Shown here piece by piece: positions 4,453-50,055 of a DNA stretch of 50,055 nt (within the stretch, counting starts at the first letter, position 1; each line of letters starts with the position of its first letter). The DNA comes from Acidobacteriota bacterium (GTDB taxonomy: Bacteria > Acidobacteriota > Terriglobia > Bryobacterales > Bryobacteraceae). The position numbers and the translations under genes were made by a program. The DNA is taken from positions 1 to 50,055 of the forward strand of contig JAPKZA010000464.1 of the NCBI GenBank assembly GCA_026394015.1, in the 5' to 3' direction. Below the pieces are notes generated by a model. That model was not told where the DNA came from and made no database searches. It saw nothing but the letters and a program-made list of their open reading frames with translations.

Positions 4453-5892
4453 CTATCGAAGGGTGCAACTACCTTTGGATTGTTCGACACGCATCGTTAG
4501 GTTCGCCAGCCCGAAATTGAGGGAACGGGAATCGCCCGAGGGACGAATGCCGCCTTTATTTGCCCGAAATGTCAGAGTGCTTTCGCCGGCGGGTAACCGC
4601 AACTGGAGAGGAGCAAATGGCAGTATTGCCTCCTGGCTCGCACTGACCTCAATGGAACCCACTTTCTGCTCTTCAAACAAGACCGTAATAGTCTCCGGCC
4701 TCACCATGGATAGATATTGACCCGAGAGGACGGCAGTCGCCGCCCGTGAAGAGAAGAGACGGAGCCGGAGATCTCCGTTTGTCCATCGGAACCACCCACC
4801 CGTTTTGCCGATTTTCTCTTCATTGTAGGCACCACTCGCGAATTCCAACGCGCAACTGACTCCGCCCAGCGTCGGGCTTTGGTCTTTCGGCGAGGGCCCG
4901 AAAGAAGTCTTAAACTCGGAGAACCCGACAATCATAGGACGCGGATCGCTATTGGGGTTGGTTGGCTGATTGGCTGGGTCGAGCGCAAGAATCCGCACAA
5001 CAGTTCGACCCGCGGGAATCGGCACCCGAATTCGGCCGGGGCCGGGGGGAACCGTTAGTGCCTCTTCGAAATCGCCGCTGGTGCGGACGAGCAACCGTCG
5101 TTCCATCGGTCCGGCGAAACTGGGGCCAGGTCGGAAGTTGGCCGCGATCTCGAGTGTAGTTGGTTTTCCTGACCGCACGGTGATCGCGGCAGCCCCCCCT
5201 CCGAGCCAGAAAAAGCGGTTTTCTGATGTTCCCTCGAGCCCGTTCGGGTTTGTGACGGATTCAATCGTTGGGGGATCATTCGGATCTACCGGCGGGCCCA
5301 CCGAGGATCCACCCTTCACGCGACTCAAAGCGGAAAACTCGACAATCCTCAGGCCGCCATCAGTCTTGCCAAGCCTAGGCATTTGGCGATCGAAGTTAAA
5401 GATAATGCGTGGTGCCGGACTCACATCGGCAAGAAGCGCCGGTGGCATCGAATAAACGGGCGGCTCCTCGAGCACCCATATGCGCTGCGTTCGAGCGGCA
5501 TCCACCAAGTTTCTGACCGTCGTCGCGGTATCGACAAATGACGGCTGCACTCGGACGCCAGCTACGTCGCGCAGGCGGGGAGCCACTGCCCAGCTCCCGT
5601 GTCGTCCAAATCCGCCAACCACGAGCAGAATGGGACGTTCCGTGTTGGCGGCGGCCCGCTGTCGAACAAACTGCACTACCTCTTTCACTCCGGCACCGCT
5701 GGACCAGCCCACCAAGTACTGTCGGTAGTCGTCCTCAGAGACAGAAGCATTCAGAGGATCTCTGAGCAGGGTAATGTCGGATCCGATCCACTGGACCAAG
5801 AGCCCGCAAACGAGCAACACCAAAAGGAGAGCGAGAGCCGCCCGGGGGGCGGGCGTCGCACGGAGAGCGTTTCGCAAGCGAGAAGTTAGCAT
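4453..5892 (-). CDS. Extracytoplasmic C-terminal half of a split GT39-like protein, two beta-rich modules
   Basis: 479 residues with one hydrophobic segment near the N-terminus (about residues 18-36) and then a soluble body. The early part (YLVGWSSGAG, then EVVQFVRQRAA) reads like the soluble segment after the last helices of GT39 proteins. Two modules follow: one (FFWLGGG...IVGFSEF, DNA about 4900-5225) resembles the C-terminus of the 7011-9464 product, and the last (AYNEEK...WFRWTNG, about 4456-4865) resembles the C-terminus of the 417-2813 product. The ATG lies 1 nt after the stop of the gene encoding the membrane half. I infer that the two polypeptides make one enzyme, or that a one-base change split a single gene. 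Confidence 0.65.
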   Translation of the reverse strand: MLTSRLRNALRATPAPRAALALLLVLLVCGLLVQWIGSDITLLRDPLNASVSEDDYRQYLVGWSSGAGVKEVVQFVRQRAAANTERPILLVVGGFGRHGSWAVAPRLRDVAGVRVQPSFVDTATTVRNLVDAARTQRIWVLEEPPVYSMPPALLADVSPAPRIIFNFDRQMPRLGKTDGGLRIVEFSALSRVKGGSSVGPPVDPNDPPTIESVTNPNGLEGTSENRFFWLGGGAAAITVRSGKPTTLEIAANFRPGPSFAGPMERRLLVRTSGDFEEALTVPPGPGRIRVPIPAGRTVVRILALDPANQPTNPNSDPRPMIVGFSEFKTSFGPSPKDQSPTLGGVSCALEFASGAYNEEKIGKTGGWFRWTNGDLRLRLFSSRAATAVLSGQYLSMVRPETITVLFEEQKVGSIEVSASQEAILPFAPLQLRLPAGESTLTFRANKGGIRPSGDSRSLNFGLANLTMRVEQSKGSCTLR

Positions 5893-10627: not shown

Positions 10628-11556
10628 TTGCCGCCCCCAATCAAGTACTCGTACAGCGCGTCCACGTTTTCGTCCATCGGCATCACTCCGTCAATCTCCT
10701 GCCCGCTCAACGCAATGCGCTGCACCGCAGCCGCGAAGGCGTCGCGGTGCCGGGTCATGACCAATACGCCGCGGCCTTCGGGAGCGATCTTCACTTCGGT
10801 CACATCCGCCTGTTCAAACAGCATCGAGGCCACCCGCGCCGGGTTCTGACAGTGCAACAGAAACTGGCTTGGGTGCTCATGGATTTCGTCGCGAACGTTT
10901 CGGATCTCGCCTTCAGCGACGATCATCCCGTTCGCAATCAGAATCACCTGATCGGAAAACACGTCGACTTCCTGCAACACGTGGCTCGACAGAATCACGT
11001 GCCGTCCCTGCGCCGCGTAGTTGCGAAATAGCGCGATCGTTTCGGCTCGGACGAGAGGATCCAAGCCGTTCAACGGCTCGTCGAGCACCAGCACAGCCGG
11101 CTCATGGGCGATCGCCTGGGCCAAGCGAATCCGCTGCCGCATCCCCTTCGAATAGGCGGCGATCTTCCGTTCGGCGGCGTGACTCAACGAAACCGTTTCG
11201 ATCGCCACAGCCGCACGGCGCTCGGCTTCCGGTCGTGGATAGCCATAGAGCAGCAGCCCCGCGACCACGAATCCGAATCCTGTCACACCGCGCGGGGCCG
11301 CGTCGTACTGCGTCGCATAGCCCAAAACCCGCATCAGCTTTTCGGGGACAAACGGCGAAACGCCGCGCACCGTAATCGACCCGCTGCCCGGATGGACGAG
11401 GCCGCTCATCAGGTTCATCAGCGTCGTCTTGCCGGATCCGTTCGGCCCCACCAAGCTGGTAATCCCCGATGGAATACGCAGGTCGACCTTGTTGACGCCG
11501 AGCACGTCACCGTAGAATTTGGACACGTTGTGGAAGAGAATCAAGTCATCGCTCAC
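10624..11556 (-). CDS. ABC transporter ATP-binding protein (ABC-2 exporter)
   Basis: 310 residues with Walker A GPNGSGKTT near residue 38, the signature YSKGMRQR, Walker B VLVLDEP followed by LNGLDP, and an H-loop in LSSHVLQE. The signature with S-K-G-M-x-Q-R is usual in CcmA/NatA-type ATPases that pair with ABC-2 permeases. I chose the GTG at 11556: it gives a 4-nt overlap with the upstream permease stop and starts just before the conserved N-terminus. A longer in-frame reading upstream is low-complexity sequence antisense to nothing but overlapping the permease gene, and was discarded. Confidence 0.88.
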   Translation of the reverse strand: MSDDLILFHNVSKFYGDVLGVNKVDLRIPSGITSLVGPNGSGKTTLMNLMSGLVHPGSGSITVRGVSPFVPEKLMRVLGYATQYDAAPRGVTGFGFVVAGLLLYGYPRPEAERRAAVAIETVSLSHAAERKIAAYSKGMRQRIRLAQAIAHEPAVLVLDEPLNGLDPLVRAETIALFRNYAAQGRHVILSSHVLQEVDVFSDQVILIANGMIVAEGEIRNVRDEIHEHPSQFLLHCQNPARVASMLFEQADVTEVKIAPEGRGVLVMTRHRDAFAAAVQRIALSGQEIDGVMPMDENVDALYEYLIGGGK

Positions 11557-39830: not shown

Positions 39831-40541
39831 TCAGTCGGTGACTACCTCTTCAAACGGCGAGGTGATCGCGTGTTGCCAGCGGATTCGGGAAGCAAGTCCG
39901 TCGACGTCAGGAAACAGGGAAGATGCGTGCACTCCGAGTCGAAATAGCTCGTAACGCAAGTGCCGCTTTCGAGAACTCGGGACTCGAAGCATCTGGATCC
40001 GCCAACTGGCAGGAAGTGATTGGTCGAGGGGAGCCTCCGGCGCTGAACATACAACGAATAGCCCTTCTTGGGCACGAATACGTGGAGTAACGATGTTCGG
40101 GTAGAATTTGACAGGTGAAGTCAAATCAAAGGGCGTCTGCATCCGTTTTGCTTCAGAGGCCTTGTTGACGGACCGGAGGGCCAAGATCGCGCCGTCAGTA
40201 TCGGTGTTCGCCTCGACCGCGAAATAGAGTGCCACCAATAGGCTGTGCGTCCAGTCGAGCAGCCGGGTCGGTAGGCCATGATGCTGCGCGAGTGAAAGCC
40301 ATTCCCACTCGTTCGCTGGTGCCGTTGCAAGAAGCCCGCGGGCCTCTCTCTGGAAAATGTCAAAGAGGCTTTGCTCATGCTTGCGCAGTGATTTTGATGT
40401 GTGCTGGCCGCGGCCTACTGAGGGGATAAGCTTGTAATCTATGTCCGAGTGCCCGCGAAAAACCCAGCGCCCTCGAGCCTCTGCGAAGTAAATCCCGTAT
40501 GCGTGATCTAGCAAGGTCTTTACCGAATCAATGTCTAGCAT
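39831..40541 (-). CDS. FRG-domain protein
   Basis: 236 residues. The FRG hallmark is seen as RWVFRGHSDIDYKLIPS (F28-R29-G30), with EWEWLSLAQHHGLPTRLLDW and LLVALYFAV next, which are the conserved core of the FRG family. The function of FRG proteins is not settled; many stand alone beside mobile or defence genes. I chose the ATG at 40541, just before the domain, though the frame stays open upstream to 40727. Its base composition lacks the C-rich + strand skew of the surroundings, and it sits between an intact and a decayed dipeptidase copy, which suggests insertion. Confidence 0.85.
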   Translation of the reverse strand: MLDIDSVKTLLDHAYGIYFAEARGRWVFRGHSDIDYKLIPSVGRGQHTSKSLRKHEQSLFDIFQREARGLLATAPANEWEWLSLAQHHGLPTRLLDWTHSLLVALYFAVEANTDTDGAILALRSVNKASEAKRMQTPFDLTSPVKFYPNIVTPRIRAQEGLFVVCSAPEAPLDQSLPASWRIQMLRVPSSRKRHLRYELFRLGVHASSLFPDVDGLASRIRWQHAITSPFEEVVTD

Positions 40542-40727
40542 TCGAAGGCAGTGTATCTTATTCTCACCGAACCTATTTGCACTTGGGTTGAGGAGCTTGC
40601 GGGCCGACTCACTCGACCTTAATCTCGGCAACCATCGAGAATACGCTGCTCTTCGATGGAACCCGGAAAGTCGCGAAGGGTTGACGACTCGCCTACCACC
40701 GATCCTCCCCCTCCGCGCCCAGGACAC

Positions 40728-40940: not shown

Positions 40941-41045
40941 CCAACCCCGCCTTCGCCGTCCTCTTCTCCACACCCAAGCCCGGCATGGGTTACAGCTCCA
41001 TCGCCCAACGCATCAATGAAGTTCGGTGCGTGTAATCTAGGAAGT

Positions 41046-41050
41046 GGAGG
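41046..41050 (+). promoter_or_regulatory. Strong ribosome binding site of the DUF433 gene
   Basis: GGAGG lies 5 nt before the ATG at 41056 and decides the start in favour of that ATG over the GTG at 41044. TAATCT about 15 nt upstream may be a -10 box. Confidence 0.6.
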
Positions 41051-41055
41051 TCGTC

Positions 41056-41295
41056 ATGGCAAGCTTGGATTGGTCGCAATGCCCGGTCGTCGAAAGCGTT
41101 CCCGGCAAGATGAGCGGATCGTGGGTACTCAAAGGCACGCGCATGCCCGTCTCGGCCATTTTCGAAAATATCGAGGCGGGAGCGAGTATTGACGACATCA
41201 TGGAGTGGTTCGATGGGCTTAACCGCGAGCAGGTGAAGGCCGTGATTGCGTTCGCCGCCCGAAGCTTGGATACCCCTCCAGCATACGCCGCTTAG
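41056..41295 (+). CDS. DUF433 family protein, probable antitoxin (VapB-like)
   Basis: 79 residues that match the DUF433 pattern: P-V-V-E-S-V-P-G-K-M-S-G at the start, WVLKGTRMPVSAIFENIEAG, then DDIMEWFDGL followed by a helix ending in VKAVIAFAARSL. DUF433 proteins have a winged-helix-like fold and are usually coded directly before a DUF5615 PIN-like toxin, as here: the stop TAG is followed immediately by the ATG of the partner. It probably binds and neutralises the toxin and controls its own operon. The protein looks intact. Confidence 0.9.
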   Translation: MASLDWSQCPVVESVPGKMSGSWVLKGTRMPVSAIFENIEAGASIDDIMEWFDGLNREQVKAVIAFAARSLDTPPAYAA

Positions 41296-41622
41296 ATGCG
41301 AATTCTCCTCGATCAGGCTACGCCTGTCCCGCTTCGTCCCTATCTCAGCGGCCATGATGTCTCAACAGCGGCCTAGCAGGGGTGGGACAAGCTGCGGAAT
41401 GGCGACCTGTTGAAGGCAGCCGAAGATGCGGGATTTGAAGTGCTGGTGACAACGGACAAAAACATGCAGCACCAACAGAACCTTTCGACTCGTAGGATCG
41501 CGATTATTTTACTGGGCAAAGGGAATTGGCCGCTGATCGAACCGCACGTGCAACTGGTGATCGCTGCAGTCAACGCAGCCGAGACTGGCAGTTTTGCCGA
41601 AGTGGACATTCCGTACAGATAA
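41296..41622 (+). pseudogene. DUF5615 PIN-like toxin with in-frame amber stop
   Basis: The frame starts at the ATG directly after the DUF433 stop and gives MRILLDQATPVPLRPYL, GHDVSTAA, then TAG at 41374-41376 at codon 27. Reading through it continues as QGWDKLRNGDLLKAAEDAG, VLVTTDKNMQ and RRIAIILLGKGNW to a TAA at 41620-41622. That continuation matches the family (GW...L.NGDLL, TTD.N), so one nonsense change, not a frameshift, has split the gene. A restart at the downstream ATG of codon 56 region would lack the catalytic N-terminus. Confidence 0.85.
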
Positions 41623-43987: not shown

Positions 43988-46537
43988 ATGTCGTTCCAGA
44001 TCCGCCCCCACAAGGAATTCCTCGTTCAGCCGGCCCTGCCGCCCGAGTTGTACCGCCTCTCCGAACTAGCCTACAACCTCCTCTGGGTCTGGGAGCCCAA
44101 CCTAAGAGGCATGTTCCGCCGCCTCGACCCCATCGCTTGGCGCCATAGCGGCCACAACCCCGTCCTCATGCTCGGCCAAGTCCCCCAGGCCAGCCTCGCG
44201 AAGGCCGCAGCCGACACCCGCTTCCTCTCGCTCTACAAAAAGGCGTGCGAACGACTCGACGCCTACATGGACTCCTCCACCGCCGCCCAGTCCGACAAAC
44301 TCATCGCCTACTTCTCCATGGAGTACGGCCTCGCCGAATGCCTCCCCGTCTATTCCGGCGGCCTCGGCGTCCTCTCCGGCGACCATCTCAAAGCCTCCTC
44401 GGATCTTGACCTCCCCCTCGTCGGCGTCGGTCTGCTCTACCAAAAGGGCTACCTCCGCCAGTACCTCAATCAGGACGGCTGGCAGATCGAAAAGTCCGTC
44501 GAAAACGATTTCTACACCCTCCCCATCCGCCCGGTCCTCCAGCCCGACGGCTCCGAACTCATCGTCTCCGTCAACCTCCCCACCGGCGTCGCCCACATCA
44601 AAGCCTGGATCATCCAGGTCGGCCGCGTCCGCCTCTTCCTCCTCGATACCAACATCCCCCAAAACCCCAGCCCCGAACTCCGCAACATCACCGATCAGCT
44701 TTACGGCGGCGACTCCGACACCCGCATCCGCCAGGAAATCGTCCTCGGCATCGGCGGCCTCCGCGTCCTCGGCGCCCTCGGCCTCAAACCCACCGTCTTC
44801 CACATGAACGAAGGCCACTCCGCCTTCCTCGCCGTCGAACGCATCCGCCTCATCATGGCTAACGACGGCCTCAACTTCGACGAAGCCGTCGAAGCCATTC
44901 GCGCCAACAGCGTCTTCACGACCCACACCCCCGTCCCCGCCGGCATCGATCTCTTCGACCCCGGGCTCCTTCACTATTACTTTCAGGCCTACTGCGCCTC
45001 CGCCGGCTTCTCCTTCGATGCCCTCGCTGGCCTCGGCCGCCGCCATCCTAACGACGGCGGAGAACACTTTTCCATGGCCGTTCTCGCCATCAAAACAAGC
45101 TGTTGGCGCAACGGCGTCAGCGCCCTCCACGGCGAAGTCTCCCGCGAAATGTGGCAGGACCTCTGGCCCCAACTTCCCCCCCGCGAAGTCCCCATCACCT
45201 CCGTTACCAACGGCGTCCACGTCTCCACCTGGCTCAACGGCGACCTCGCCAGCGTCTACGATAACTTCCTCCAACCCGACTGGCGCGAAAACACAGAAAA
45301 CAAGTCCACCTGGGACCTCATCGACGACATCCCCGCCGAAGAGATCTGGGAAGCCCACAAGAAGCGGAAACGCCAGCTCATCACCTTCGTCCGCTCCCGC
45401 GCCACCGCCGCCGCCACCCTCCGAAAATCATCCCCCACCGACATCCGCCGCCTCTCCGACATCCTCGATCCCGACGTCTTCACTATCGGCTTCGCTCGTC
45501 GCTTCGCCACCTACAAGCGAGCGACGCTCATCTTCAAGGATCTCCCCCGCCTCAAGCGCCTCCTGACCAACAACCGCATGCCGGTCCAGATCCTCGTCTC
45601 GGGCAAGGCCCATCCGAAGGACATCCCCGGCAAAACCCTCATCCGCGAAATCGTCCAACTCTCCCGCGACCCCGAAATCTCCCGCCGCCTCGTCTTCGTC
45701 GAAGACTACTCCATGCAGGTAGCCCGCGAACTCGTCCAAGGCGTCGACCTCTGGCTCAACAACCCCCGCCGCGGCGAAGAAGCCTGCGGCACATCCGGCA
45801 TGAAAGCCGCCCTCAACGGCAACCCCAACCTCTCCGTCCTCGATGGCTGGTACGACGAAGCCTACGAAACCTCCGGCGGCTGGGCTATCGGCGACCGCGA
45901 ACCCTACTCCGAGGACCAGGACGAAATGCACACCGCCGCCGTCCTCTCCCTCCTCGAAAACGAAATCGTCCCGCTCTACTACTCCGCCCGCGCCGACGAA
46001 GTCCCCCACGAATGGGTACGTCGCATGAAACTCAGCCTCAAAAACGTCACCCCGCAATACGACGCCAAGCGCATGCTCAACGAGTATTCCAGCCTCCTCT
46101 ACAACCCCGCCCACGACCTCGCCGCCGACATCGCCGCCAAGAACTTCCAAGCCGCCAAAACCCTTGCCGTTTGGGATAAGCAGGTCCACGAAGTCTGGAA
46201 TCGCGTCCGCTTCGTCGAAGTCGACGGTGGCCCCGTGTCCACCATCCAAACCGGCAAGGCCCTGCCCTTGCGCGCCACCATCGAACTCGCCGGCCTCAAA
46301 CCCGAAGACGTTCGCGTCGAAGCCGTCGTCGGCCGCATCGATGCCGACGGCAATCTCGAAGATTCCGCCGTCATCGCCCTGCCTGTCATTGAGCAGCAAG
46401 GCACGGCCTTCTCCTTCGGGCGCGAATACTCGCCCCTCCAAACTGGGCGCCTCGGCTTCGCTTTCCGTATCAGTTCGAACCACTATCGCGACCCCCTCAC
46501 CCGGCCCACCAACGCCCTCCTGAAGTGGTCCGACTAG
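43988..46537 (+). CDS. glgP: Alpha-glucan (glycogen/maltodextrin) phosphorylase
   Basis: 849 residues, the length of the actinobacterial/acidobacterial alpha-glucan phosphorylases. An N-terminal DUF3417 region (LSELAYNLLWVWEPN) precedes the GT35 catalytic part: YFSMEYGLAECLPVYSGGLG, HMNEGHSAF, TTHTPVPAG, and GTSGMKAALNGN with the PLP-bound lysine near residue 606. A ~100-residue beta-rich tail closes the protein. It releases glucose-1-phosphate from storage or taken-up glucans. It stands alone on the + strand, 43 nt after the SUMF1-like gene, with no other glycogen genes in view. Confidence 0.93.
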   Translation: MSFQIRPHKEFLVQPALPPELYRLSELAYNLLWVWEPNLRGMFRRLDPIAWRHSGHNPVLMLGQVPQASLAKAAADTRFLSLYKKACERLDAYMDSSTAAQSDKLIAYFSMEYGLAECLPVYSGGLGVLSGDHLKASSDLDLPLVGVGLLYQKGYLRQYLNQDGWQIEKSVENDFYTLPIRPVLQPDGSELIVSVNLPTGVAHIKAWIIQVGRVRLFLLDTNIPQNPSPELRNITDQLYGGDSDTRIRQEIVLGIGGLRVLGALGLKPTVFHMNEGHSAFLAVERIRLIMANDGLNFDEAVEAIRANSVFTTHTPVPAGIDLFDPGLLHYYFQAYCASAGFSFDALAGLGRRHPNDGGEHFSMAVLAIKTSCWRNGVSALHGEVSREMWQDLWPQLPPREVPITSVTNGVHVSTWLNGDLASVYDNFLQPDWRENTENKSTWDLIDDIPAEEIWEAHKKRKRQLITFVRSRATAAATLRKSSPTDIRRLSDILDPDVFTIGFARRFATYKRATLIFKDLPRLKRLLTNNRMPVQILVSGKAHPKDIPGKTLIREIVQLSRDPEISRRLVFVEDYSMQVARELVQGVDLWLNNPRRGEEACGTSGMKAALNGNPNLSVLDGWYDEAYETSGGWAIGDREPYSEDQDEMHTAAVLSLLENEIVPLYYSARADEVPHEWVRRMKLSLKNVTPQYDAKRMLNEYSSLLYNPAHDLAADIAAKNFQAAKTLAVWDKQVHEVWNRVRFVEVDGGPVSTIQTGKALPLRATIELAGLKPEDVRVEAVVGRIDADGNLEDSAVIALPVIEQQGTAFSFGREYSPLQTGRLGFAFRISSNHYRDPLTRPTNALLKWSD

Positions 46538-46577
46538 CCGCCCCCCTGTCATTCGTGGTACATCTCTAAGCAACCAT

Positions 46578-47090
46578 ATGGACGGCGATCGGAAATACAA
46601 ACAGGCCGGTTACCAGGACTCCTCCTCGGAAAAAACCAAAGGTGGCGGCAGCAAGGCCGACCACTACATTAACGGCGAATACTACGGTTCCCGTGCGCCC
46701 CTCGACGGGCCGCACACTCCGCGCCTCGTCCGGAGTGTCACCGCCAGCCGTTGCTTCAATTGCTCCAACCCCCTCCCCGCCGGTTTCGATTTTCTCCAGC
46801 CCTGCCCCAAGTGCGCCACGCTCCTCCACTGCTGCTCCCAATGCGGCCACATGGACTCCTCCGCCCGTTTCCAATGCCTCCAAACCATCCCCGAGCGCAT
46901 CCCCTATAAAGACAAAGCGAACGAGTGCACCCTCTTCTCCCCCCGCATCACCGTCGCTCGGGACACCGCCGCCCCCGTCACCGCCCCCAACACCAAACCC
47001 TCCGCCGTCAACGCCGCTCCTAACGTAACCCGCAAGGTCCAGAACGCCCGCGACGCCTTCGACAATCTCTTCAAAAAGCCCTCCGAATAA
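46578..47090 (+). CDS. Small conserved protein with two zinc-ribbon motifs
   Basis: 170 residues. The middle carries two close cysteine clusters: RCFNCSNPLP ... CPKCATLLHCC and CSQCGHMD ... RFQC, the spacing of one or two zinc ribbons. A polar, charged N-terminus (KYKQAGYQDSSSEKTKGGG) and a Pro/Ala/Thr-rich C-terminal region flank them, with KKPSE at the end. I do not recognise the function; binding of nucleic acid or a protein partner is a guess. It lies 40 nt after the phosphorylase and 7 nt before the alcohol dehydrogenase, so it may be in one transcript with the latter. Confidence 0.65.
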   Translation: MDGDRKYKQAGYQDSSSEKTKGGGSKADHYINGEYYGSRAPLDGPHTPRLVRSVTASRCFNCSNPLPAGFDFLQPCPKCATLLHCCSQCGHMDSSARFQCLQTIPERIPYKDKANECTLFSPRITVARDTAAPVTAPNTKPSAVNAAPNVTRKVQNARDAFDNLFKKPSE

Positions 47091-47097
47091 TCCTCCC

Positions 47098-48108
47098 GTG
47101 CGCACCGCCCAACTCATCGCCCAACACCGTTTCGAACTCGTCGATGCCCCTCCCCCGCCCCCGCCCGGCCCCGGTGAAGTCCAGGTCCGTGTCCACGCCG
47201 TTGGTATCTGCGGCTCTGATCTGCATAACTTCTCCGAAGGCCACATCGGCGACACCCCCACCGTCTTCCCCATGGTCCTCGGCCACGAGCCCACCGGCAC
47301 CATCGTCGGCTCTGGCGAACGCGTCATCCTCGAACCCGCCGTCTATTGCTACCACTGCCCCATGTGCCGTTCCGGTCGCCACAACCTCTGCGACCACATC
47401 CGCTTCTACAGCGCCGGCCCCGACCCCGGCTTCTTCCGCGACGTCGTCAACCTCCCCGCCCACAACGTCCTCCCCCTCCCCGCCGGCCTCGGCTTCGCCG
47501 AAGGGACGCTCTTCGAGCCCCTCGCCATCGCCCTCCACTCCCTCCACTTCGCCCGCCCCATCCCCGGAGAAACCGCCGCCGTCTGGGGGTGCGGACCCAT
47601 CGGAGTCCTGACCATCGCCATGCTCAAGCTCCAGGGAGTCCGCCGCATCTTTGCCATCGACCCCGTGCCCCACCGCCGAGCCATGGCCGTCACATACGGG
47701 GCTACTGCCGCCTTCGCCCCCGCCGAAGCCCTAGCTGAAATCAAGGCCGCCACCGGCAGCCGAGGGGTCGACATAGCGATGGACTGCGCCACGAAGGACG
47801 GCTCTCTCGAAGCCGCCTGCTACGCCGTCGCCCGCGGCGGCCGCCTCATCGTCACCGGCATCCCCTCCGAGCCGATGCCGACCATCCACTTCCACGAACT
47901 CCGTCGCAAGGAAGTGCCCCTCATCCCCATCCGCCGCAGCAACCACGAGACCCACGTCGCGCTGGATCTCCTGCACGAGCAACCGACGCTCTTCGGTCCC
48001 TTGGTAACGCACGAAAGCCCCCTCGAATCGATCGAGGAGGCCTTCACCATGTTGGAGCATTACCGAGACAACGTCGCTAAGGTAGTGATCGATCTTACTG
48101 CTTCGTAG
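47098..48108 (+). CDS. Zinc-dependent alcohol/polyol dehydrogenase (MDR family)
   Basis: 336 residues, the usual size. The catalytic zinc site is seen in VGICGSDLHNF and VLGHEPTG; the structural zinc has four cysteines in YCYHCPMCRSGRHNLC (about residues 84-98). The NAD loop is WGCGPIGV. Sequence near the N-terminus (GICGSDLHNF) is like sorbitol/threonine dehydrogenase relatives. It most likely oxidises a sugar alcohol or a related secondary alcohol. The start is a GTG at 47098, 7 nt after the zinc-ribbon gene. Its stop overlaps the convergent exported-protein gene by 14 nt. Confidence 0.88.
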   Translation: MRTAQLIAQHRFELVDAPPPPPPGPGEVQVRVHAVGICGSDLHNFSEGHIGDTPTVFPMVLGHEPTGTIVGSGERVILEPAVYCYHCPMCRSGRHNLCDHIRFYSAGPDPGFFRDVVNLPAHNVLPLPAGLGFAEGTLFEPLAIALHSLHFARPIPGETAAVWGCGPIGVLTIAMLKLQGVRRIFAIDPVPHRRAMAVTYGATAAFAPAEALAEIKAATGSRGVDIAMDCATKDGSLEAACYAVARGGRLIVTGIPSEPMPTIHFHELRRKEVPLIPIRRSNHETHVALDLLHEQPTLFGPLVTHESPLESIEEAFTMLEHYRDNVAKVVIDLTAS

Positions 48109-48463
48109 CCGACCAGTCGATCTTTTGCATCTGCCCGCCCATATCGGTTTCGGCGGCACCCTTGATTTTGGTGCCGTCCACTTCCCCCGACATCTTGTAG
48201 GTCATGGACCCACCGTCCTGCCGATCTCGTTTGACGGTGAAGGTAACCTTCTTTCCGTCCACGGTGCCTTCTGAAATCTTCAGCGACCGTCCCCCGGGAA
48301 ACTCGACGGTTCCGGTGAACGTGGCGTCTTTCTGTTCGATCGCCATCTTGGCATCGACCGGCCCCTGCGGCCCGGCCATCTGGAACGCCCAGTTCCCATT
48401 CAGCGAGTCAGCCCCAAAGGCCGCCACCGCCATCCCAATCCCGACCAAAATTCGTAGCATCAT
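48095..48463 (-). CDS. Small exported beta-rich protein
   Basis: 122 residues. The N-terminus (MMLRILVGIGMAVAAFGA) is a short signal peptide. The rest alternates short beta strands with conserved-looking features: LNGNWAFQM, ATFTGTVEF, DGKKVTFTV, MSGEVDGTKIKG. This pattern occurs in a group of acidobacterial small secreted proteins of unknown role that may bind a hydrophobic ligand. The start is the first ATG of an ATGATG. It is only 4 nt downstream of the -1 frame stop of the DUF4276 gene, so it could be co-transcribed with it. Confidence 0.7.
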   Translation of the reverse strand: MMLRILVGIGMAVAAFGADSLNGNWAFQMAGPQGPVDAKMAIEQKDATFTGTVEFPGGRSLKISEGTVDGKKVTFTVKRDRQDGGSMTYKMSGEVDGTKIKGAAETDMGGQMQKIDWSATKQ

Positions 48464-48467
48464 AAGC

Positions 48468-49060
48468 TCACCCTGACTCTCTCAGCAGATGCAACAGCCG
48501 CCTCGCTGATGCACACTTTTTTTAACTTCCGCCGGATCCAACATTCCTAGCAGTTCAAACGACGCCGCACCCTTCTTGTATTGCTTCGACGTAGCCTTTT
48601 CCAGGACATCATCCACCGTCGCTTTAGGCACCTTCTCTAGATCGGGCCACTGTTTTAATGCGGTCTCCTTGAAAGCGCTCCCAAACTTCTTCTTCAGCCG
48701 CTGAGGATCCGCCAGGAACCACGTTTCCATGCAGACCGTCATGAGGTGTGCAGCATCGTCACGAGCGGTGTTCAGCTTCTGCCATCGATCGGCCTCTCTT
48801 TCAGCCAAGTGCGTCCAAGCGGTGTTCCCCGGCGTCGGTATATCCTCGCTATCTACGAGCAGAAGCACCACTTCAGAGCCAGCTCTTCTTCCTTCCGCCG
48901 CCAGAAAATCACGCCACGTACTGCTTCGGTCGCCTCCCCGTATGACTCGAGGTCGATTTGCAATACCGGCCTTCTTGAAAAAATCAGCCCACCCACGCCG
49001 GAACGCCTCTTGGAGCGAACTGCCCTCTCCGCCACCCTCAATGTAAATCTTGGCGCTCAC
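48468..49060 (-). CDS. DUF4276 family protein (TOPRIM-like), 0-frame ends early at a seven-A run
   Basis: The 0 frame gives 192 residues and stops at 48482. The body matches DUF4276: IYIEGGGEGSSL, ADFFKKAGI, RGGDRSSTW, VLLLVDSEDIP and LMTVCMETWFLAD, with acidic residues expected for a TOPRIM-like metal site. The last residues SVHQRGGCCIC do not fit the family. A -1 shift at the seven-A run (48517-48523 on the + strand) gives VKKKCASARRLLHLLRESG and a stop at 48468, which does fit. The ATG overlaps the stop of the ATPase gene by 4 nt, so both form an operon. Confidence 0.8.
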
Positions 49061-50055
49061 CAGCGGTTACCGCCGAGTTCACCCTTGCCCCACAGTTCTC
49101 CCAGGGAATAGCGATCAAGCCACCCCTTCATCCGTTCGCCATCCAGGCGCTCAAACCGCGACTCCCCGTCTTCTCTCTCACAGATGATAACGGCTTCAGG
49201 TTCTTCCGATAGGGCATCAATGAGTTGCCTCGAGTGCGTGGTGATAACGATTTGCATCCGCTTCGACGCCGCAAGTAAGAGCTTAGCAATCAAATGGACA
49301 AGATCCGGATGGAGTCCTAACTCCGGTTCCTCTATCGCGATAAAGGGTGGCGGCTCGGGATGCAACAGGATTGCCAACAGGCAAAGGTAACGGAGTGTGC
49401 CGTCCGAAAGTCTTGTTGCAGGAATTCTCCGTCCTCCGGACTCCTCCAGAAAGAGTTGCACCGTTCCGCCGCTGATCGGAAGGGCGATCCCCTCAACCCC
49501 TTCATAGACGTTCCTGAGTTCGTCAACGATCTCTTGACGTTTTTTGCCAGAAAAACTGGACAGCACAAGTGCGAGGTTGCCGCCGCCGTCGTCGAGATAG
49601 TCACTTGCTTCATGGGTACTCTGTTCTCTTCGAAGTGGCGAGTTCGGGCCAAATGACCAGTTTCGGTACAACCGAATTGCACTGTACGTAGTCTGAAGCC
49701 GTGTAAGTGGTGGATATCGCTCTGAATCTTTAAACTGAGACAAAACTGATGCTTCCAAACTCACTTGCTCCCGCGTGAGTTTCCGCTTTGCATGTTCGAA
49801 ATCTACGAGGACAGCCCTACCCTGCTGGAATCTGTAGTAGAAATATGGATCGTTCTTCCCTGCGTAAGCGACCTCATTCTCCACCTTCTCGTCGACTACC
49901 TCAAATCGGCCACCATGGTCCTGAATCGAGAGAATATGACGGAAATTCTGTTGCTGACCCGGGTTAGACACAATCACATCACTTTTGGCTGTGCCTTGCC
50001 CCTCGGCGCTTTTCCACATCCACTCCTGCACGCCTCCCATCTCCTTCACAGGGCG
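49057..50055 (-). CDS. AAA/OLD-like ATPase, partial (N-terminus beyond the window)
   Basis: 332 residues are visible; the frame is open to the window edge. The usual N-terminal Walker A part lies outside. What remains shows an ABC-like signature LSDGTLRYLCLLAIL, Walker B FIAIEEPELGLHP and an H-like loop ITTHSRQLID, as in RecF/OLD/AAA_21 ATPases that act with partner nucleases. The stop overlaps the start of the DUF4276 gene by 4 nt. The sequence has no C-rich skew on the + strand, unlike the region to the left. It is best read as the ATPase of a two-gene defence-type operon. Confidence 0.85.
   Translation of the reverse strand, partial: RPVKEMGGVQEWMWKSAEGQGTAKSDVIVSNPGQQQNFRHILSIQDHGGRFEVVDEKVENEVAYAGKNDPYFYYRFQQGRAVLVDFEHAKRKLTREQVSLEASVLSQFKDSERYPPLTRLQTTYSAIRLYRNWSFGPNSPLRREQSTHEASDYLDDGGGNLALVLSSFSGKKRQEIVDELRNVYEGVEGIALPISGGTVQLFLEESGGRRIPATRLSDGTLRYLCLLAILLHPEPPPFIAIEEPELGLHPDLVHLIAKLLLAASKRMQIVITTHSRQLIDALSEEPEAVIICEREDGESRFERLDGERMKGWLDRYSLGELWGKGELGGNRW

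What the first reader, a model, noticed from the sequence alone, without database searches (positions are those of the whole stretch)
48468..50055. AAA ATPase + DUF4276 operon: candidate defence system at the window edge
An OLD/RecF-like ATPase gene (Walker B and H-loop seen) overlaps by 4 nt a DUF4276 gene with TOPRIM-like acidic motifs. ATPase plus TOPRIM-like partner is the logic of known anti-phage pairs such as PARIS (AriA/AriB), but DUF4276 is a different partner family. The locus lacks the surrounding strand skew, as expected for an acquired module.
Basis: partly seen in the sequence, partly recalled or inferred. Interest (0 to 1): 0.7.

Follow-up and report, generated by a model that had tools for sequence, protein, structure and literature searches.

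The report
HEC-01-type anti-phage gene pair
At the end of this bacterial contig lies a two-gene module, an ATP-using sensor-like protein and a probable nuclease, that matches an already catalogued candidate anti-virus system and sits at a spot where related bacteria carry different genes.

Summary
On the minus strand an ABC-type ATPase gene (49057-50055, cut by the contig end) overlaps a DUF4276 gene (48482-49060) by 4 nt. The pair is not a new system: it matches both halves of HEC-01, a "Hma-embedded candidate" already in PADLOC-DB (HEC-01A 3e-126, HEC-01B 3e-54). Linkage is near-obligate: of 77 other DUF4276 genes over the Pfam cut-off in 396 genomes of the phylum, 71 have this ATPase directly upstream; five of six misses lie at contig ends, one is a fragment. 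DUF4276 is predicted (pLDDT 90) in Toprim order; its best solved match is an OLD Toprim domain, weakly (E 0.011). Acquisition is supported: in the genus the same site holds the pair, another gene, both, or two unrelated genes, and against the closest congener silent sites agree 76-80% in the two large flanking genes but 25-33% in the pair. In 9 of 13 relatives scanned in part, a neighbour matches a defence model. Most likely it is an ATPase-gated Toprim nuclease of the PARIS/OLD kind, trigger and substrate unknown. This copy's effector tail departs from its relatives, so it may be impaired.

The parts
49057..50055 (-). HEC-01A: ABC/AAA_21-type ATPase, C-terminal 332 residues; about 55 N-terminal residues with Walker A lie beyond the contig end
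   Evidence: PADLOC PDLC04177 3e-126, profile 59-393 of 393; PF13304 5.3e-25; alignment with 13 relatives
48482..49060 (-). HEC-01B: DUF4276, predicted Toprim-type nuclease, 192 aa
   Evidence: PF14103 1.3e-14; PADLOC PDLC04201 3.2e-54; AlphaFold2 pLDDT 90, strands 3-7, 37-41, 64-70 with E8 and D70/E72 at strand ends
49057..49060 (-). 4-nt stop/start overlap (GTGA) coupling the two genes
48482..48523 (-). C-terminal tail of DUF4276 that departs from the relatives after a run of seven A; another frame loosely resembles their tail
   Evidence: alignment of 14; other-frame translation
48095..48463 (-). 122-aa gene beside the pair, no Pfam match; it stands alone at this site in three congeners
43988..48108 (+). 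conserved left flank of the variable site: glycogen phosphorylase, 170-aa protein, zinc alcohol dehydrogenase
   Evidence: Pfam; some part matched in 19 of 19 genomes of the genus, own included

Best explanation
The pair is a member of the HEC-01 candidate anti-phage system, acquired by exchange at a variable chromosomal site. HEC-01A is an OLD/AriA-like ABC ATPase that would sense infection. HEC-01B (DUF4276) is a metal-dependent Toprim-type nuclease made from the coupled gene just downstream. By analogy with PARIS and OLD nucleases, the ATPase assembly would hold or position the nuclease; a phage trigger would release or activate it, nucleic acid would be cut and the infection would stop. 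Shown in silico: family membership of both genes, near-obligate pairing, Toprim-like order with conserved acids, frequent position near restriction genes, exchange at this site. Inferred: sensing, gating, nuclease activity, substrate (host tRNA or phage DNA) and protection.
For: HEC-01A/B profiles; 71 of 77 linkage and 13 + 6 of 29 loci from the ATPase side; AlphaFold2 model and Foldseek best hit 6njv, an OLD Toprim region, prob 0.96; E8 80/82, D70 80/82, E112 82/82; ATPase model resembles PtuA and OLD among others; 18 of 30 scanned neighbours in 9 of 13 relatives match PADLOC models at E <= 1e-15 against 1 of 10 control genes; silent-site contrast and GC3. AriA/AriB mechanism from passages of PMC12409363.
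Against: No experiment. Foldseek support is weak (E 0.011, TM 0.43, no hit under 0.001, AriB not in the 50 rows shown). The second acid of DxD is Y in 23 of 68 printed family rows. ATPase models resemble SMC/Rad50 heads as well as defence ATPases. Neighbours were chosen by me, 30 of about 111 ORFs; 4 of 13 relatives gave none at 1e-15. The window's own visible flank holds metabolic genes.
Confidence: 0.7

Rival explanations
1. Same module, but working like OLD/Gabija: ATPase and DUF4276 form a nuclease complex that cuts phage DNA directly, with no host-RNA target. A sub-case of the best explanation.
For: Best structural match of DUF4276 is an OLD Toprim region; the ATPase profile hits OLD best in the PDB sequences, 5.5e-10, with SMC next at 8.7e-10; OLD and GajA cut DNA (PMC10568477, first part of five).
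Against: Two separate genes, as in PARIS; the small DUF4276 has no evident extra DNA-binding domain in the model. PMC12409363 passages note that OLD was also reported to act on RNA.
Confidence: 0.35
2. A toxin-antitoxin-like module without phage specificity: DUF4276 is the toxin and the ATPase the neutraliser, kept by addiction.
For: Two overlapping genes; near-absence of DUF4276 without the ATPase; presence on plasmids.
Against: The ATPase comes first and is a large sensor-type ABC protein; neighbours are restriction and other defence genes; L129 has a stop in the ATPase while its DUF4276 frame is open (draft assembly).
Confidence: 0.12
3. The window copy is decaying and no longer works, whatever the family does. 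Compatible with the best explanation.
For: The DUF4276 tail is unlike the 13 relatives after an A7 run; a congener copy (L142) has an early stop in DUF4276 and a family copy (L129) a stop in the ATPase Walker B.
Against: The core motifs are intact; only about 11 residues at the end differ; assembly error at a homopolymer is possible; the ATPase start cannot be seen.
Confidence: 0.3
4. Housekeeping RecF/SMC-like ATPase with an accessory gene, not defence.
For: Weak SMC_N match (E 0.0016, under cut-off); resemblance to SMC/Rad50 heads.
Against: Patchy: 10 of 19 genomes of the genus at E <= 1e-20, own included, and 5 with the close subfamily; exchange at the site; HEC-01A far outscores SMC.
Confidence: 0.02

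Closest known systems
HEC-01 (PADLOC-DB 2.0; Hma-embedded candidate, Payne et al. 2024 preprint, not held)
   Same: Both genes, gene order and coupling; best profiles for both proteins are HEC-01A and HEC-01B
   Different: No difference in kind found; the window copy lacks its 5' end and has an odd effector tail
PARIS (AriA/AriB)
   Same: Separate ABC ATPase and Toprim-type partner in one operon; ATPase related to AriA (PDLC02980 1.8e-25, a general AAA_21-like model)
   Different: Partner is DUF4276; Pfam shows no DUF4435 (the AriB family, recalled) for it; trigger and tRNA cleavage untested
OLD / Gabija GajA / HEC-04
   Same: ABC ATPase joined functionally to a Toprim domain; Old PDLC02358 3.6e-10; Foldseek 6njv. 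HEC-04, a fused ABC-Toprim, is reported active against T4 and T5 (PMC12111858, passages)
   Different: There the two domains are one protein; here two genes, and no UvrD-like partner was seen
MADS MAD3 and AbiL AbiLi
   Same: Related ATPases (NF047739 6e-17; AbiLi 1.9e-13)
   Different: 61.9 bits against a MAD3 cut-off of 420; only HEC-01B models were hit by the DUF4276 protein at E <= 1

Membership tests
HEC-01 | HEC-01A-type ATPase | tested here: met
   PDLC04177 3e-126 over profile 59-393 of 393
HEC-01 | HEC-01B (DUF4276) partner | tested here: met
   PDLC04201 3.2e-54; PF14103 over its cut-off
HEC-01 | the two genes adjacent | tested here: met
   4-nt overlap; 71 of 77 elsewhere
HEC-01 | intact Walker A in this copy | not testable with these tools
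   beyond the contig end; present in 13 relatives
HEC-01 | anti-phage activity | not testable with these tools
   no statement on HEC-01 itself in the passages seen
PARIS | DUF4435-type AriB partner | tested here: not met
   partner matches DUF4276 alone in Pfam and HEC-01B alone in PADLOC
PARIS | AriA as best ATPase model | tested here: not met
   HEC-01A 3e-126 against AriA 1.8e-25
OLD / Gabija | ATPase and Toprim in one polypeptide | tested here: not met
   two ORFs
Toprim fold | acid after strand 1 and acid(s) after strand 3 of an alternating fold | tested here: met
   E8; D70 and E72; kept in 80 of 82 for E8 and D70; second acid not universal
Toprim fold | significant match to a solved Toprim structure | tested here: inconclusive
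   best hit 6njv, E 0.011, prob 0.96, TM 0.43; none by sequence
MADS (MAD3) | NF047739 over its cut-off | tested here: not met
   61.9 of 420 bits

The most novel reading that the evidence does not exclude
HEC-01 is a PARIS-like guard of restriction systems: the ATPase senses phage anti-restriction proteins and unleashes a DUF4276 Toprim ribonuclease on host tRNA; alleles are swapped at fixed chromosomal sites and often inactivated because the effector is costly.
Probability: 0.2. Interest if true: 0.55.

Novelty: new member of a known kind. Interest (0 to 1): 0.3.

Why it matters
In the phylum surveyed, a family known only as DUF4276 is almost always the second gene of an ABC-ATPase module and is predicted to have a Toprim-type core. 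That makes a concrete nuclease hypothesis testable for a catalogued but uncharacterised candidate. The site also gives a clear example of allele exchange at a chromosomal spot whose visible flank is metabolic.

Tried and rejected
Housekeeping RecF/SMC was rejected by profile scores and patchy presence, although PDB sequence and fold searches hit SMC heads about as well as OLD.

Vertical descent at the site with merely fast protein change was considered. The tree puts the window with the 90%-identical congener at 86/89 (not strong) and does not reject the three same-site copies as one clade (p-AU 0.16), so the tree alone does not show exchange. Silent sites do against L142. Against the more distant L130 the contrast is smaller: 0.57 and 0.37 in the two large flanking genes, 0.22 and 0.21 in the pair.

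The missing 5' end and the right-hand border of the site were looked for in the own genome and not found.

A profile of DUF4276 found nothing credible among PDB sequences. Phages: 5 of 50,697 records with a distant ATPase; the one opened has no DUF4276 annotated beside it. Plasmids: 238 of 72,556 records, all under 60% identity, the 15 listed at 27.8-29.9%; two opened, both with DUF4276 annotated next to the ATPase; the DUF4276 protein of L005 as query found none. Library: DUF4276 in no held paper; HEC-01 in five, of which by title one is relevant. The literature searches gave nothing useful.

Full report
What is there. The window is the whole of contig G000:C440. On the minus strand its last 1.6 kb hold two genes: an ATPase reading in from the contig end (50055-49057, 332 aa, start not seen) and a 192-aa DUF4276 protein (49060-48482). 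They overlap by 4 nt, GTGA. Pfam gives AAA_21 at 5.3e-25 for the first, matching only positions 134-304 of that profile, and DUF4276 at 1.3e-14 for the second. The fragment has Walker B and the His switch; aligned with 13 relatives it lacks about 55 residues that hold Walker A. A search of the own genome did not find the missing end.

What family. PADLOC-DB names the genes HEC-01A (3e-126) and HEC-01B (3.2e-54). For the ATPase the best non-HEC-01 model is AriA at 1.8e-25; for the DUF4276 protein only HEC-01B models were listed at E <= 1. NCBIfam has no model over its cut-off for either; MAD3 is a distant relative of the ATPase (61.9 of 420 bits). HEC stands for Hma-embedded candidate, from a 2024 preprint that is not held and that I know only through citing papers (passages: PMC12988326; PMC12111858). 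These say that several HECs, HEC-06 and HEC-04 among them, have shown antiviral activity. PMC12409356 (passage) set HEC labels aside as unverified or unpublished at the time, though some were verified later. I saw no statement on HEC-01 itself; PMC12724379 (passage) only lists a predicted occurrence. DUF4276 occurs in no paper of the held library.

Linkage. In 396 genomes of the phylum 55 have a DUF4276 match and 48 one over the cut-off. I took the 77 over-cut-off places other than the window. In 71 the ATPase lies directly upstream on the same strand (in two of them as split ORFs). Of the six misses five have under 150 bp of contig upstream and one is a 65-aa fragment. From the ATPase side 29 loci were found in one scan of GTDB genomes: the 13 close ones have an overlapping DUF4276 gene downstream, six more distant ones also have one, one is cut by its contig end, and the nine weakest have none at E 0.01.

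Fold and active site. The DUF4276 model from 14 sequences has mean pLDDT 90 and the order strand-helix-strand-helix-strand, with E8 after the first strand and D70/E72 after the third, as in Toprim domains (Toprim layout recalled). In 82 aligned members E8 and D70 are each kept in 80 and E112 in 82; 9 of the 77 fetched proteins were left out as fragments or shortened, and rows are not independent. In 23 of 68 printed rows a Y stands where E72 is. Foldseek's best of 350,542 PDB chains is the Toprim region of an OLD protein, at E 0.011, probability 0.96, TM 0.43; no hit reaches 0.001, and AriB is not in the 50 rows shown. The fold claim therefore rests on order and residues as much as on the search. 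The ATPase, modelled on relative L005 (pLDDT 79), matches retron PtuA, SMC and Rad50 heads and OLD. By sequence its profile hits OLD (5.5e-10) and SMC (8.7e-10) about equally, and AriA at 3.3e-7.

Surroundings elsewhere. I scanned 30 of about 111 neighbour ORFs in the 13 close relatives, chosen by me as large or near. 18 of the 30, in 9 of 13 loci, match PADLOC models at E <= 1e-15: type I restriction genes (L006, L007, L009, L010, L013), a type III pair with HEC-01 between its two genes (L011), GajA (L009), PtuA and a TIR protein (L013), Cas6 and a kinase (L014), TmtA (L015), a DpdF-like helicase (L005), and an RmrA-like protein with a general peptidase domain (L006). L008, L012, L016 and L017 gave none at that level. 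Of ten control genes, eight from the window and two beside the own genome's second copy, one matched. This is support, not an unbiased rate. Two plasmid pairs were opened; one lies between a helicase and methylase and an Mrr gene, the other beside a VapBC pair.

The site. The genes before the pair, glycogen phosphorylase to alcohol dehydrogenase, are matched in some part in 19 of 19 genomes of the genus, own included. I fetched the region in nine of the others; seven show both sides. Between the dehydrogenase and a ROK-family gene, three have only the 122-aa gene (L143-L145), one only a HEC-01 pair (L130), one the 122-aa gene plus a HEC-01 pair (L142, where the right border matches over 73 bp only), and two have two genes with carboxypeptidase-regulatory-like domains (L146, L147). 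The pairs of L142 and L130 are HEC-01 by profile. The window is of the L142 type as far as it can be read. Against L142 identity runs at 79-96% up to about 48500 and at 47-66% in the pair. Fourfold silent sites agree in 360 of 450 and 138 of 182 in the two large flanking genes, 50 of 78 and 30 of 57 in the two small ones, but 11 of 33 and 22 of 88 in the pair. Faster protein change over the same time would not do that, so the pair was exchanged or gained separately. Against L130 the contrast is smaller, and the protein tree alone does not decide. Third-position GC is 0.56-0.59 in the pair and 0.76-0.84 in the flanking genes.

Condition of the copies. The window's DUF4276 ends in a tail unlike the 13 relatives after an A7 run; another frame loosely resembles theirs. 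L142 has an early stop in DUF4276, and L129, from the family, a stop in the ATPase Walker B. These are draft assemblies and errors are possible. If real they suggest frequent loss, as expected of a costly effector. The own genome also has a second, different HEC-01 pair on contig C389 with both frames open.

Mechanism. Shown: pairing, family, fold order, conserved acids, exchange, neighbourhood. Inferred: ATP-dependent sensing, gating of a metal-dependent nuclease, abortive outcome. In PARIS, AriA holds AriB until a phage protein triggers it and AriB cuts tRNA (PMC12409363, passages). OLD and GajA cut DNA (PMC10568477, first part of five), and OLD-ABC/Toprim pairs are described as backup effectors near BREX (PMC12839542, passages). 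Nothing here decides between RNA and DNA.

Verdict. Observation confirmed; interpretation supported, with the correction that the system is already catalogued as HEC-01. It is a new member of a known kind.

Noticed in passing
window 39831-40727 (-): FRG-domain protein (PF08867 7e-30) that matches PADLOC's single-gene candidate PDC-S15 at 9e-70, about 8 kb from the pair.
   Followed up: partly
window 41044-41622 (+): DUF433 gene (PF04255 1.5e-16) followed by a 70-aa ORF without a Pfam match; looks like a small toxin-antitoxin-type pair (role recalled, not tested).
   Followed up: no
L118:9904-11564 (G000:C389): A second HEC-01 pair in the own genome, of another clade (PDLC04175 1e-118, PDLC04188 9e-69), genes 2 bp apart.
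   Followed up: partly
L142 about 5535-5650; L129 about 10718-10743: Interrupted HEC-01 copies: an early stop in DUF4276 of L142 and a stop inside the ATPase Walker B of L129; draft assemblies.
   Followed up: partly
L130, L142-L147, after the alcohol dehydrogenase gene: A variable site in the genus: 122-aa gene, HEC-01 pair, both, or two carboxypeptidase-regulatory-like genes before a ROK-family gene.
   Followed up: yes
L006:2804-4497: An M78-peptidase gene and a DUF4411 gene lie between the HEC-01 pair and a type I restriction gene; perhaps another embedded two-gene module.
   Followed up: no
DUF4276 family alignment: A large subgroup has D-x-Y where Toprim domains have DxD/DxE, while E112 is kept in 82 of 82; the metal site may use that residue instead.
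   Followed up: no
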